This document shows, piece after piece, positions 18,850 to 21,202 of a stretch of DNA of 45,949 bases. Within the stretch, counting starts at the first letter, position 1. Every line of letters starts with the position of its first letter. The notes beneath the pieces were generated by a model. The model was not told the origin of the DNA. It saw nothing but the letters and a program-made list of their open reading frames with translations, and made no database searches. Origin of the DNA: Vulcanimicrobiota bacterium (GTDB taxonomy: Bacteria; Vulcanimicrobiota; Vulcanimicrobiia; Vulcanimicrobiales; Vulcanimicrobiaceae); contig JAFAJV010000050.1 in assembly GCA_019235995.1 (NCBI GenBank), positions 1 through 45,949 on the forward strand. The letters run 5' to 3'. A program made the position numbers and the translations under genes.

Positions 18850-19829
18850 GAATCGTCACCTTCGATGCGCCCGGCCCACCCGACGTGCTGCGAATCGCCG
18901 ACGCCGACCCTCCGGCGCTCGGGCCGGACGACGTCCTGATTGCCGTCGAGGCGGCGGGCGTCACGCACGCCGACGTCATGCAGCGGGAGGGACGCTATCC
19001 CCCGCCGCCGGGCGCGAGCGCGATCCTCGGGCTCGAAGTCGCCGGCTCGGTCGCGCGCGTCGGGGAGCGCGCGACGCAGTGGCGCGCCGGCGACATGGTC
19101 TGCGCGCTGACCAACGGCGGCGGTTACGCCGAGTGCGTGGCGGTGCCGCAGGGCCAAGTCTTGCCGGTGCCTTCGGGCTGGAGCGCGATCGAGGCCGCAA
19201 CGCTGCCGGAGAACGCCTTCACGGTCTACGACAATCTGATCACGCGAGCGCGCCTGACCCGCGGAGAGATGGCGCTCGTCCACGGCGGCACGAGCGGCAT
19301 CGGCAGCACGGCCATCATGTTCGCGCGGGCGCTCGAAGCGACGGTCATCGCGACCGCCGGGAGCCCCGAGAAGTGCGCGGCCTGCGTGAGACTCGGTGCG
19401 GCGCACGCAATCGACTATCGCACGCACGACTTCGTGATGGAGACGCTGCGCCTGACGGACGGCCGCGGCGTGGACGTCGTCCTCGACATCGTCGGCGGCG
19501 ACTACGTCGCGCGCGACCTCGAATGCCTGGCGACCGACGGCCGCATCGCGTGCGTGGCGACGCAGCGCGGCCGAACGGTCCAGCTCGATCTCGGCCGGCT
19601 CCTCGCCAAGCGCGCGACGATTCTCGGCTCGAGCCTCCGGCCGCGCAGTGCCGAGGAGAAGGCCGCCATCGCGCGCGCGCTGCGCGCGGCGATCTGGCCG
19701 CTGCTGCCCAGGCGCGACCCGATCGTGCCGGTTGTGGACTTGGTCTATTCTTTCGAACGGGCCGCCGAGGCGCACGCGCGCCTCGAAGCGAGCGCGCATA
19801 TCGGCAAGATCGTGCTGACCCCGCGCTAG
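18846..19829 (+). CDS. Quinone oxidoreductase-like zinc-independent dehydrogenase
   Basis: A 327-residue medium-chain dehydrogenase/reductase of the NADPH:quinone oxidoreductase type. The catalytic N-terminal domain includes AAGVTHADVMQREGRYP, and the Rossmann domain has GGTSGIGSTAI (nucleotide loop) and GRGVDVVLDIVGG. Zinc-site cysteines of alcohol dehydrogenases are absent, as expected for this group. The substrate is unknown. ATG at 18846 overlaps the queA stop (ATGA). Its TAG stop overlaps the stop of the convergent minus-strand gene. Confidence 0.9.
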   Translation: MRIVTFDAPGPPDVLRIADADPPALGPDDVLIAVEAAGVTHADVMQREGRYPPPPGASAILGLEVAGSVARVGERATQWRAGDMVCALTNGGGYAECVAVPQGQVLPVPSGWSAIEAATLPENAFTVYDNLITRARLTRGEMALVHGGTSGIGSTAIMFARALEATVIATAGSPEKCAACVRLGAAHAIDYRTHDFVMETLRLTDGRGVDVVLDIVGGDYVARDLECLATDGRIACVATQRGRTVQLDLGRLLAKRATILGSSLRPRSAEEKAAIARALRAAIWPLLPRRDPIVPVVDLVYSFERAAEAHARLEASAHIGKIVLTPR

Positions 19830-20344
19830 TGGTAGATACCCTGACTGACTGACGTGAAGCCCGTGGCCATGAAGAACAGCATCGGGATCGATAGCATCGT
19901 GTTGACGCGCGACGCCAAGAACGCCGGCCGGCGCGCCTTCGCCTTCTCCTCGTCGGTCGCGGGCACGATGCCCAGCAGCTTCTTTTGATTCGGCCAGATG
20001 ACGAGCCAAACGTTGAGGAGCATGATCGTTCCGAGCCACGCGCCGATCCCGATCGGAGCCATCGCGCCGTGCAGCAGGAACGCGGCGACGAACCCGTTCT
20101 CGCCGGCTCCGCGGTAGTTCCCTAGCAGCGCGGCACCGAAGATCCACGTGACGATCGCGCCCCAGCGGAAGTACGCCAGCGCGCGGGGCATGATGTACTT
20201 GGAGATCGGCCCTGCCTCGCCGGCCGCCGTCGCCTCTTTGACGGCCGCGGCGTTCACGAAGTTGAAGAAGTAGAGCAGGCCGATCCACATGATGCCGGCG
20301 AGGATGTGGAACCAGCGGAAGATGAAGTCGAGATTGATCGACAT
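19826..20344 (-). CDS. PuuD-like (urate oxidase N-terminal type) membrane protein
   Basis: A 172-residue integral membrane protein with about four helices. It opens FIFRWFHILAGIMWIGLLYF and carries LNVWLVIWPNQKK near residues 110-125. Both are typical of the membrane domain of PuuD urate hydroxylases and related DUF989-like proteins. The C-terminal cytochrome c domain of full PuuD is absent, so a urate role is not assured; a haem-binding membrane subunit is also possible. It starts 1 bp after the stop of a 38-residue membrane peptide gene, with which it probably forms an operon. It is divergent from superoxide dismutase. Confidence 0.78.
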   Translation of the reverse strand: MSINLDFIFRWFHILAGIMWIGLLYFFNFVNAAAVKEATAAGEAGPISKYIMPRALAYFRWGAIVTWIFGAALLGNYRGAGENGFVAAFLLHGAMAPIGIGAWLGTIMLLNVWLVIWPNQKKLLGIVPATDEEKAKARRPAFLASRVNTMLSIPMLFFMATGFTSVSQGIYH

Positions 20345-20345
20345 C

Positions 20346-20462
20346 TTACGCTCCCGCCCCGAGCGCGCTCGACACGATCCAGCGCGCGACGACCCACAGG
20401 ATCGCCGTCAGAACGAAGCCGCAGATGACGGTCCCCCAAAGTGAATCCAGTGGATTCTTCAC
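20346..20462 (-). CDS. 38-residue single-pass membrane peptide
   Basis: On the minus strand a GTG start at 20462 is preceded by a strong ribosome-binding site (GGGAGG, 8 bp upstream). The frame encodes 38 residues beginning VKNPLDSLWG, with one hydrophobic helix (TVICGFVLTAILWVVARWIV) and ending in TAA at 20346. The PuuD-like gene begins 1 bp later, so co-translation is likely. The size, helix and tight pairing suggest a small accessory subunit of that membrane protein. I do not recognise the family. Confidence 0.72.
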   Translation of the reverse strand: MKNPLDSLWGTVICGFVLTAILWVVARWIVSSALGAGA

Positions 20463-20596
20463 GTAAAGACCTCCCTCGCGATCGCGGTGGTTGGCGATAC
20501 ATGTTGCTCGCTTCGGCAGTGTGTCCTTCCGGTCGGCAGCGCCGGCGCTTGGGAACCCGGTTTGGCGCGCGGGGCGCCCGGGTATTCAGAAGAGTT
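20463..20596. promoter_or_regulatory. Divergent control region between membrane operon and sod gene
   Basis: These 134 bp separate the GTG of the minus-strand membrane peptide from the ATG of superoxide dismutase and must hold both promoters. On the minus side the ribosome-binding site GGGAGG is clear. On the plus side AGAAGAG lies 3 bp before the ATG. A GC-rich self-complementary core (GGGCGCCC) sits about 20-30 bp before the sod start. I could not pick convincing -35/-10 hexamers. Confidence 0.45.
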
Positions 20597-21202
20597 ATGA
20601 AAATCTACACGCCGATCAAGACCTACGCTGCGAAGAAGTGGAACCTATCCGGCTTGCAGGGCATCTCCGACGCGACGCTCGAGATGCACTTCGGGCTCTA
20701 CGAAGGCTACGTCAAGAACGTGAACCTGTTGAACGAGCGGCTGAGCGAGCTGCGCTCCGCGGGCAAGGCCGCCGGCAGCGACCCCGCCTATGCCGAGCTC
20801 GTCCGTCGTCTCGGATTCGAGTACAACGGGATGCGGCTTCACGAATACTATTTCGACAACATGGTTCGCGAGCCGCACGAGACCGGCAACGGCCGCCTCT
20901 ACAACGTGCTCGGAGAAAGCTACGGCGGCTTCGACGAGTGGAAGAAGGACTTCATGGCCGTCGGGGGGATGCGCGGCATCGGTTGGGTGATCGCGTACTG
21001 TGACACCACCAACGGGCAGATTACGAATCACTGGATCAGCGATCACGAAAACGGGAACCTCGCCGGCTTCGTGCCGATCGTCGTCATGGACGTTTGGGAA
21101 CACGCCTTCATTAAGGACTACAAGCCCGCAGAAAAAGCTAAATACATCGAGGCCTTCTTTGCCAACCTCGATTGGAAGGCGTGCGAGTCGCGACTGTCCT
21201 AG
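20597..21202 (+). CDS. Superoxide dismutase, Fe/Mn family
   Basis: A 201-residue iron/manganese superoxide dismutase that disproportionates superoxide to oxygen and hydrogen peroxide. All four metal ligands are in place: His31 (EMHFGLYEGYV), His82 (RLHEYYF), Asp165 and His169 (DVWEHAF). No signal peptide is present, so it is cytoplasmic. The SYGGFDEWKKDF segment and GWVIAY support the family. Metal preference is not decided here. ATG at 20597 has AGAAGAG just upstream, and a longer frame from 20441 is only the open 5' region. Confidence 0.95.
   Translation: MKIYTPIKTYAAKKWNLSGLQGISDATLEMHFGLYEGYVKNVNLLNERLSELRSAGKAAGSDPAYAELVRRLGFEYNGMRLHEYYFDNMVREPHETGNGRLYNVLGESYGGFDEWKKDFMAVGGMRGIGWVIAYCDTTNGQITNHWISDHENGNLAGFVPIVVMDVWEHAFIKDYKPAEKAKYIEAFFANLDWKACESRLS

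What the first reader, a model, noticed from the sequence alone, without database searches (positions are those of the whole stretch)
19826..20462. Unannotated 38-residue membrane peptide coupled to a PuuD-like protein, divergent from SOD
A peptide with a strong ribosome-binding site and one membrane helix lies 1 bp before a four-helix PuuD-type protein that lacks the cytochrome c part. Small single-helix subunits are often missed. The shared control region with superoxide dismutase hints at a redox link.
Basis: partly seen in the sequence, partly recalled or inferred. Interest (0 to 1): 0.5.

Follow-up and report, generated by a model that had tools for sequence, protein, structure and literature searches.

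The report
Overlooked helix subunit of PuuD-like proteins
A 38-amino-acid membrane peptide with no known protein family appears to be a conserved missing piece of a small urate-oxidase-like membrane protein: in other bacteria a matching helix is fused to that protein at one end or the other.

Summary
The 38-codon ORF (20346-20462, minus; GTG, GGGAGG) ends 1 bp before a 172-residue short DUF989/Urate_ox_N protein. A peptide like M(K)NPLDSxxGTxxxGxxLT precedes the short DUF989 gene in all 110 loci examined (about 102 distinct; closest relatives only) and in the 30 best of 61 places of an order sample. It has no Pfam or NCBIfam family. In relatives it is fused to the DUF989 N-terminus (19 same-frame cases in 143 genomes); in a sister clade a matching helix is the C-terminal one, after an extra helix. 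No peptide was found at 6 full-length PuuD genes. So it is very probably a split or relocated fifth helix, not a leader. AlphaFold2 folds the natural fusion confidently (pLDDT 90.5). The activity is unknown; a quinone-linked membrane oxidoreductase is my inference. Short DUF989 was known (Doniselli 2015); I found no mention of the peptide in what I read.

The parts
20346..20462 (-). small subunit gene: 38-aa single-helix peptide (GTG start, TAA stop)
   Evidence: present in 110 of 110 loci; codon-position signature and ribosome-binding site
20470..20475 (-). ribosome-binding site GGGAGG, 7 nt before the GTG
   Evidence: sequence read; printed beside the ORF
19826..20344 (-). short DUF989 / Urate_ox_N (PuuD-like) membrane protein, 172 aa, no cytochrome c
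   Evidence: PF06181, 71.3 bits; no cysteine in the translation
20351..20355 (-). GGGAG inside the end of the peptide gene, 6 nt before the ATG of the DUF989 gene; suits translational coupling (inference)
   Evidence: sequence read
20463..20596 (.). 134-bp divergent intergenic region between the peptide gene and the SOD gene
   Evidence: divergent SOD in 11 of the 30 loci L001-L030, the window's own included
20597..21202 (+). Fe/Mn superoxide dismutase, divergent neighbour
   Evidence: PF02777, 72.3 bits; start found

Best explanation
The peptide is a real, co-translated subunit of the short DUF989 protein, probably an obligate one: a relocated transmembrane helix that completes its four-helix core into a five-helix unit. 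In relatives the same helix is the first helix of the polypeptide (N-terminal fusion), and in a sister clade a matching helix is the last one (reached by one extra helix). As a separate gene just upstream it would insert on its own and pack against the core. The complex most likely works as a small quinone-linked membrane oxidoreductase on the cytosolic side, as argued for PuuD. Shown here: conservation, coding nature, adjacency, natural N-terminal fusions, sequence match of the C-terminal helix, confident fold of the fused form, recurrent SOD neighbours. Inferred: co-translation, physical contact in the split form, orientation (N-terminus inside), cofactor, substrate, quinone as electron partner.
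For: Adjacency: 110 of 110 loci. Phylum sample: 51 of 53 short DUF989 places have an adjacent peptide-profile hit; one exception is cut by a contig end, the other has a divergent candidate peptide. Order sample: 30 of 30 loci, the best 30 of 61 places. Exclusivity: in 143 class genomes all 38 peptide-profile places fall at short DUF989 genes and none at the 6 full-length PuuD genes. Fusions: 19 of those 38 lie in the same open frame as the DUF989 protein. C-terminal form: in 11 of 12 C-type proteins the peptide profile's best match lies in the last helix, though two of these are weak (1.2 and 3.0 bits); 6 of 12 isolated tails score at least 12.3 bits, against 3 of 6000 shuffled tails at 12.0 or more, the highest shuffle 15.9. 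Structure: the N-fused form folds at pLDDT 90.5, with the peptide part as a short turn, a break and a helix; the last helix of the C-type shows a similar turn, break and helix. SOD within about 420 nt: 11 of 30, 6 of 69 and 6 of 30 loci.
Against: No experiment, and no model of the split pair: only single chains could be folded, and no coordinates were available to measure contacts. Full-length PuuD shows no sequence match to the peptide (best 1.2 bits, not in helix VIII), so equivalence with PuuD helix VIII rests on position only. One short DUF989 gene of the class sample (G218) and one pqq-linked one (L112) have no recognisable peptide, and the N-terminal extensions of G182 and G263 lack the motif. 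The samples favour close relatives: the named set is the best 80 of at least 593 relatives, the order loci the best 30 of 61 places. Only one histidine is invariant in the short-family alignment A3, a second one in the C-type only, so a bis-histidine heme is unlikely in the split form. Fold matches to heme b cytochromes (Z about 9-12) are within what helical bundles give. The commonest neighbour found in the proteobacterial loci is argD, not a redox gene.
Confidence: 0.8

Rival explanations
1. The peptide is a translated leader: its translation opens the ribosome-binding site of the DUF989 gene, and its product does nothing.
For: In many loci it ends within a few bases of, or overlaps, the next gene, as expected for coupling.
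Against: The amino-acid sequence, not just an open frame, is conserved (in the 40 rows chosen for A2: N3 P4 L5 S7 G10 G15 invariant; L094, left out of A2, reads MKYFLDS). It is fused in frame to the partner in 19 class-sample genes. Eight split loci have gaps of 52-79 nt, too far for tight coupling.
Confidence: 0.05
2. The peptide is an independent small membrane protein (toxin-like or stress peptide) that merely lies upstream.
For: Size and a single helix resemble many small hydrophobic proteins (recalled).
Against: In 149 plus 143 genomes the profile is found only at short DUF989 genes, apart from one peptide at a contig end and one weak hit in an unrelated protein.
Confidence: 0.03
3. The complex is a membrane superoxide-handling enzyme, working like superoxide oxidase (CybB/SOO): it takes electrons from superoxide and passes them to quinone, or it makes superoxide that the neighbouring SOD removes.
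For: SOD genes of two quite different sequence types lie within about 420 nt of it, upstream or downstream, same or opposite strand. The four-helix core resembles heme b bundles, cytochrome b561 included (4o7g: Z 11.1, rmsd 2.9, 142 aligned). SOO is a minimal four-helix protein that reduces quinone (abstract of PMC11869295).
Against: SOO uses two b hemes; only one histidine is invariant in A3. Most loci have no SOD beside them. The fold match is within helical-bundle noise.
Confidence: 0.2
4. It is an oxidase of nitrogen heterocycles: the pqq-linked branch acts on a PQQ precursor without oxygen, as proposed in print, and other branches on other substrates.
For: The cluster pqqAED-puuD-serC-pyrD is proposed for anaerobic PQQ synthesis (PMC12423496, passages). 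pqqD and pqqE lie before a short DUF989 gene in L111, L112, L210 and L211, and a peptide lies between pqqE and DUF989 in L111, L210 and L211.
Against: The pqq-linked branch is distant (38.6% and 36.6% identical to the window protein; long branch). The window neighbours scanned with Pfam hold no PQQ gene.
Confidence: 0.15
5. The short DUF989 protein replaces HemJ (protoporphyrinogen oxidase), which has no match in the window's genome.
For: No HemJ match in the own genome; 7 of 149 phylum genomes have one, none of them in the window's family f1. Weak similarity to the HemJ profile (E 0.019).
Against: In 143 class genomes HemJ is present in 122, and in at least 48 of the 51 genomes that have short DUF989 (one HemJ-less genome is not listed): they go together, they do not replace each other.
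Confidence: 0.02

Closest known systems
Short DUF989 proteins (COG3748 / PF06181, four helices I, II, V, VI of PuuD; Doniselli et al. 2015, PMC4562309)
   Same: The 172-aa partner is a member: PF06181 match in two stretches, no cytochrome c, context unlike puuD
   Different: The passages and the Discussion that I read mention neither the upstream peptide nor the fusions
PuuD cytochrome c urate oxidase
   Same: Same core helices and core sequence motifs
   Different: Eight helices plus cytochrome c, purine genes around it (as its authors report), no peptide found beside the 6 examined genes
CydX-type small subunits of respiratory enzymes (seen here in the search listing only, PMC4325964 and PMC6005532)
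   Same: A 30-40 residue single-helix protein beside its large membrane partner, easily missed
   Different: No sequence relation known to me (recalled, not tested); here the small subunit also has fused counterparts
Superoxide oxidase CybB/SOO (abstract of PMC11869295)
   Same: Small four-helix membrane bundle; superoxide context through SOD neighbours
   Different: SOO holds two b hemes; short DUF989 has one invariant histidine in A3; no PDB chain matched by sequence at E up to 1
pqqAED-puuD-serC-pyrD cluster proposed for anaerobic PQQ synthesis (PMC12423496, passages)
   Same: Contains a distant short DUF989 protein, and three of the four examples here also carry a peptide
   Different: Different clade and neighbours; the peptide is not mentioned in the passages seen

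Membership tests
DUF989 / Urate_ox_N (PF06181) | profile match over the curated cut-off | tested here: met
   71.3 bits against 26.9
PuuD urate oxidase | C-terminal cytochrome c with CxxCH | tested here: not met
   172-aa protein without a cysteine
PuuD urate oxidase | eight transmembrane helices | tested here: not met
   172 aa and a two-stretch PF06181 match; the N-fused relative L136 folds with four long helices plus the peptide helix; the window protein itself was not folded
PuuD urate oxidase | purine degradation genes in the neighbourhood | tested here: not met
   the four neighbours scanned are SOD, a QueA-type protein, an NFACT protein and a 326-aa protein without a Pfam match; the rest of the window was not scanned
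PuuD urate oxidase | urate oxidation | not testable with these tools
   needs an assay
Small accessory subunit of a membrane enzyme (CydX-like in kind) | short single-helix ORF conserved beside one partner gene | tested here: met
Small accessory subunit of a membrane enzyme (CydX-like in kind) | natural fusion with the partner (supporting feature) | tested here: met
   N-terminal fusions; C-terminal match
Small accessory subunit of a membrane enzyme (CydX-like in kind) | physical association and need for activity | not testable with these tools
   needs co-purification and mutants
Superoxide oxidase (cytochrome b561 type) | four-helix membrane bundle | tested here: inconclusive
   Z 11.1, rmsd 2.9, 142 aligned with cytochrome b561 4o7g, within helical-bundle noise
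Superoxide oxidase (cytochrome b561 type) | conserved histidine pairs for two b hemes (ligation recalled) | tested here: not met
   H13 is the only invariant histidine in A3; the C-type has one more (H161 of L184)
HemJ replacement | complementary distribution with HemJ | tested here: not met

The most novel reading that the evidence does not exclude
The peptide plus short DUF989 is a widespread, uncharacterised two-gene membrane enzyme whose fifth helix has moved between three gene positions (own gene, N-terminus, C-terminus): a natural split and circular-permutation-like series. It works at the meeting point of superoxide, quinone and heterocycle redox chemistry beside SOD.
Probability: 0.3. 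Interest if true: 0.78.

Novelty: new variant of a known kind. Interest (0 to 1): 0.6.

Why it matters
A conserved subunit without a Pfam or NCBIfam family means that work on short DUF989 proteins may use an incomplete enzyme. (In the one annotated record seen that carries it, L111, no gene is listed there, but that gene table is incomplete.) The natural fusions give ready-made single-chain versions for expression and structure. A helix that changes gene position is a clear test case for how membrane proteins split and rejoin. The recurrent SOD neighbour, and the published pqq clusters, give concrete hypotheses for a family whose activity is unknown outside PuuD.

Tried and rejected
HemJ replacement: rejected in the class sample.

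Peptide as PuuD helix VIII by sequence: peptide profile against 6 full-length PuuD gave at most 1.2 bits, not in helix VIII; a profile-profile alignment of C-type and full-length PuuD stopped before helix VII. Only the position after helix VII in the C-type suggests equivalence.

Known fold: Foldseek against the PDB gave no match at E 0.001 or better for the N-fused model. VIA-align gave Z up to 12.5 and 11.3, led by designed bundles; cytochrome b chains follow; not used as proof. No PDB sequence relative of either protein at E up to 1.

SOD divergence as a general rule: rejected. The divergent order was seen in Eremiobacterota and L056; the other proteobacterial cases are co-directional. Whether another gene lies between SOD and DUF989 was not checked in each locus.

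Function from argD: argD follows on the same strand in 38 of 67 loci with room (of 69 loci L039-L110 not titled Eremiobacterota), 13 of 24 (L132-L155), 2 of 16 C-type and 0 of 11 Eremiobacterota; it lies in the locus in 14 of 14 (L195-L208) and 12 of 30 (L212-L241), place and strand not checked. Some genomes recur between these sets. No mechanism found; left open.

L110 as a fusion: its sequence holds Ns; the profile hit of its genome G153 does lie in a 213-aa open frame. Not counted among the 19.

Rows dropped: A2 holds 40 of the 105 motif peptides; L029 and L030 left out of A2 and A3 after a strand error; A6 holds 13 of 16 C-type loci, L192-L194 lost when a script stopped; 12 of these 13 were scored (L188 left out, near copy of L187).

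Literature: searches. 'DUF989', 'COG3748', 'Urate_ox_N' or 'urate hydroxylase PuuD' occur in 2 papers held; one of them, PMC3597751, was seen in one passage. The Pro-SMP finder paper has no hit for six terms. My statement that I found the peptide nowhere in print rests on these searches, on passages and the Discussion of PMC4562309 and on passages of PMC12423496; supplements were not read.

Full report
WHAT IS THERE. The window belongs to a 2.6-Mb genome, G000; its nearest named relatives are titled Eremiobacterota. On the minus strand a 38-codon ORF, 20346-20462, starts with GTG 7 nt after GGGAGG, and its TAA lies one base before the ATG of a 172-aa protein, 19826-20344. That protein matches PF06181 Urate_ox_N with 71.3 bits and has no cysteine, so no cytochrome c part. 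Divergently, 134 bp away, starts a Fe/Mn superoxide dismutase. The peptide has no Pfam or NCBIfam family. In the own genome the DUF989 query has one match, the gene itself.

IS THE PEPTIDE REAL. I took the 30 best loci from genomes of the phylum and the best 80 of at least 593 relatives in the named genome collection. Eight (L031-L038) repeat contigs of the first 30, leaving at most 102 distinct. A motif search found the peptide just upstream in 105 of 110. The other five carry it with small changes (L011, L021, L097), cut by a contig end (L075), or in frame with the DUF989 gene (L110). Titles cover Eremiobacterota, Proteobacteria and one Nitrospira. In the 40 rows chosen for alignment A2, N3, P4, L5, S7, G10 and G15 are invariant; some peptides outside A2 differ (L094 reads MKYFLDS, L097 MKTPLDS). 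In 27 Eremiobacterota genes of equal length the variable sites by codon position are 26, 19 and 36; a ribosome-binding core precedes 95 of 105 starts, against 8.3% of all possible start codons in the loci. Length is 25-38 residues in these 105.

IS IT TIED TO THE SHORT DUF989 GENE. Phylum sample, 149 genomes: 53 places match the short protein at E 8e-27 or better, and 51 have an adjacent peptide-profile hit (tally). Of the two exceptions, G075 is cut by a contig end and G079 has a divergent candidate, MRNALHSPWIAFAIGLAVTAALYALAWRLVPHVTGS. Two profile hits lie elsewhere: G110:C109, where the contig ends just after the peptide, and G139, a weak hit in an unrelated protein. None of the profile hits lies at the longer-frame, weaker PuuD-like matches.

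The peptide profile gave 38 places, all at short DUF989 genes and none at full-length ones. Of the 14 short places without a hit, seven are the C-type described below (G157, G185, G191, G200, G220, G265, G290). Five have an N-terminal extension with a hydrophobic stretch, in which MNPL is plain in G171, G193 and G295 and absent in G182 and G263. One is an 81-aa open frame, not resolved (G211). G218 has no recognisable peptide. Order sample (order of Thiobacillus), 250 genomes: 60 had a match at E 1e-20 or better, 61 places; loci were given for the best 30, and 30 of 30 carry the peptide. At least two of these 30 genomes (G149, G154) were already in the earlier set. The other 31 places were not examined.

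THREE POSITIONS OF ONE HELIX. In 19 of the 38 class-sample places the peptide lies in the same open frame as the DUF989 protein, as its first helix; alignment A4 holds 23 proteins with such an extension, one of them (L149) without the motif. In the C-type (13 proteins, alignment A6) the protein has an extra helix after the core and then a last helix whose consensus GPxxSVxGVIHSSxxLT is close to NPLDSLWGTVISGLVLT. The peptide profile's best match lies in that last helix in 11 of 12 C-type proteins. Scored alone, 6 of 12 tails reach at least 12.3 bits, against 3 of 6000 shuffled tails at 12.0 or more; the best shuffle reached 15.9. In the tree the C-type is one clade (100/99), and N-fusion needs at least two changes by well-supported branches and five by parsimony. 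The tree's bootstrap had not settled, and the long C-type and pqq branches meet, which may be false. The Eremiobacterota proteins lie beside a Thiobacillus one among Betaproteobacteria (97/77, not a starred branch); gene transfer is a possible reading.

STRUCTURE. The N-fused protein L136 folds with mean pLDDT 90.5 and pTM 0.82: a short turn (3-5), a helix (7-25), then four long helices. The C-type L184 folds with pLDDT 88.9 and pTM 0.82, and its last helix shows a similar turn, break and helix (196-199, 201-222). Against the PDB, Foldseek gave nothing at E 0.001 or better for L136. VIA-align gave, after designed bundles, cytochrome b6f 7r0w (Z 11.9, rmsd 3.6, 139 aligned), b561 4o7g (Z 11.1, 2.9, 142) and STEAP1 6y9b (Z 10.9, 3.9, 171, spanning residues 7-199), within the stated noise for helical bundles. 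Among histidines only H13 is invariant in A3; the C-type has one more.

TOPOLOGY (inference). Doniselli et al. argue for an outside-outside topology of PuuD (Discussion read). If helix I starts outside, an N-fused helix must start inside. In the C-type, helix VI ends outside, helix VII returns inside, and the last helix again runs from inside to outside. So the helix has the same direction in the fused forms, and helix VII is needed only when the helix sits at the C-terminus.

NEIGHBOURS. SOD: divergent in 11 of the 30 loci L001-L030, the window's own included, and also in L035 (a repeat of L022), L040 and L044. Among the 69 loci L039-L110 not titled Eremiobacterota it lies near DUF989 in 6: L056 on the opposite strand; L068, L084, L086 upstream on the same strand; L087, L109 downstream on the same strand; gaps 85-387 nt. 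It also lies upstream of the peptide-less G218 (L162). In the order sample it is near 6 of 30, gaps 167-422 nt; some of these may be near copies of the earlier loci. The C-type loci L179-L194 gave no SOD hit. The proteobacterial SODs match the G218 query at 54-74%, while the window SOD matched L109 at 30%. By my own estimate, assuming about one SOD gene per genome, chance gives about 0.1-0.2% per locus; I did not count SOD genes. argD follows on the same strand in 38 of 67 and 13 of 24 loci. A distant clade of short DUF989 sits in pqqD-pqqE clusters, a cluster published as a candidate for anaerobic PQQ synthesis (PMC12423496). There too a peptide lies between pqqE and DUF989 in L111, L210 and L211; it is not seen in L112. 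L209, of the same clade, has one upstream of DUF989, its neighbours not identified.

WHAT IT MOST LIKELY DOES. The peptide is a structural subunit of the short DUF989 protein. The enzyme activity is not known. PuuD oxidises urate, on the cytosolic side as its authors argue; the pqq branch is proposed to act on a PQQ precursor; SOD neighbours point to oxygen chemistry. I think a quinone-linked oxidoreductase is most likely, and a superoxide-handling enzyme possible (0.2).

NOVELTY. Short DUF989 proteins were described in 2015 as a four-helix core in a different genetic context. In what I searched and read I found no mention of the peptide or of the fusions. I rate it a new variant of a known kind: an overlooked small membrane subunit, unusual in having both N-terminal and C-terminal fused counterparts.

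Noticed in passing
L056, L068, L084, L086, L087, L109, L162, L224, L226, L227, L230, L234, L235: Superoxide dismutase genes within about 420 nt of short DUF989 in Proteobacteria, upstream or downstream, all but L056 on the same strand.
   Followed up: partly
L039-L110, L132-L155, L195-L208, L212-L241: argD (class-III aminotransferase), often with argF and argG, lies by the short DUF989 gene in many proteobacterial loci; the reason is unknown.
   Followed up: partly
L111, L112, L210, L211: A distant short DUF989 clade lies in pqqD-pqqE clusters (serC follows in L111 and L112, a class-V aminotransferase in L211); a peptide is present in three of these four and not listed in the incomplete gene table of L111.
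   Followed up: partly
L135 / L193 (G157:C40): The C-type DUF989 frame of this 1.5-Mb genome is interrupted by one in-frame TGA; pseudogene, error or another genetic code was not tested.
   Followed up: no
G000 and the phylum sample: HemJ (PF03653) has no match in the window's genome, and the 7 of 149 genomes with a match all lie outside the window's family f1; which protoporphyrinogen oxidase they use was not examined.
   Followed up: no
window 19826-20344 and relatives: In the tree the Eremiobacterota short DUF989 proteins lie next to a Thiobacillus sequence among Betaproteobacteria (97/77), which may mean gene transfer.
   Followed up: no
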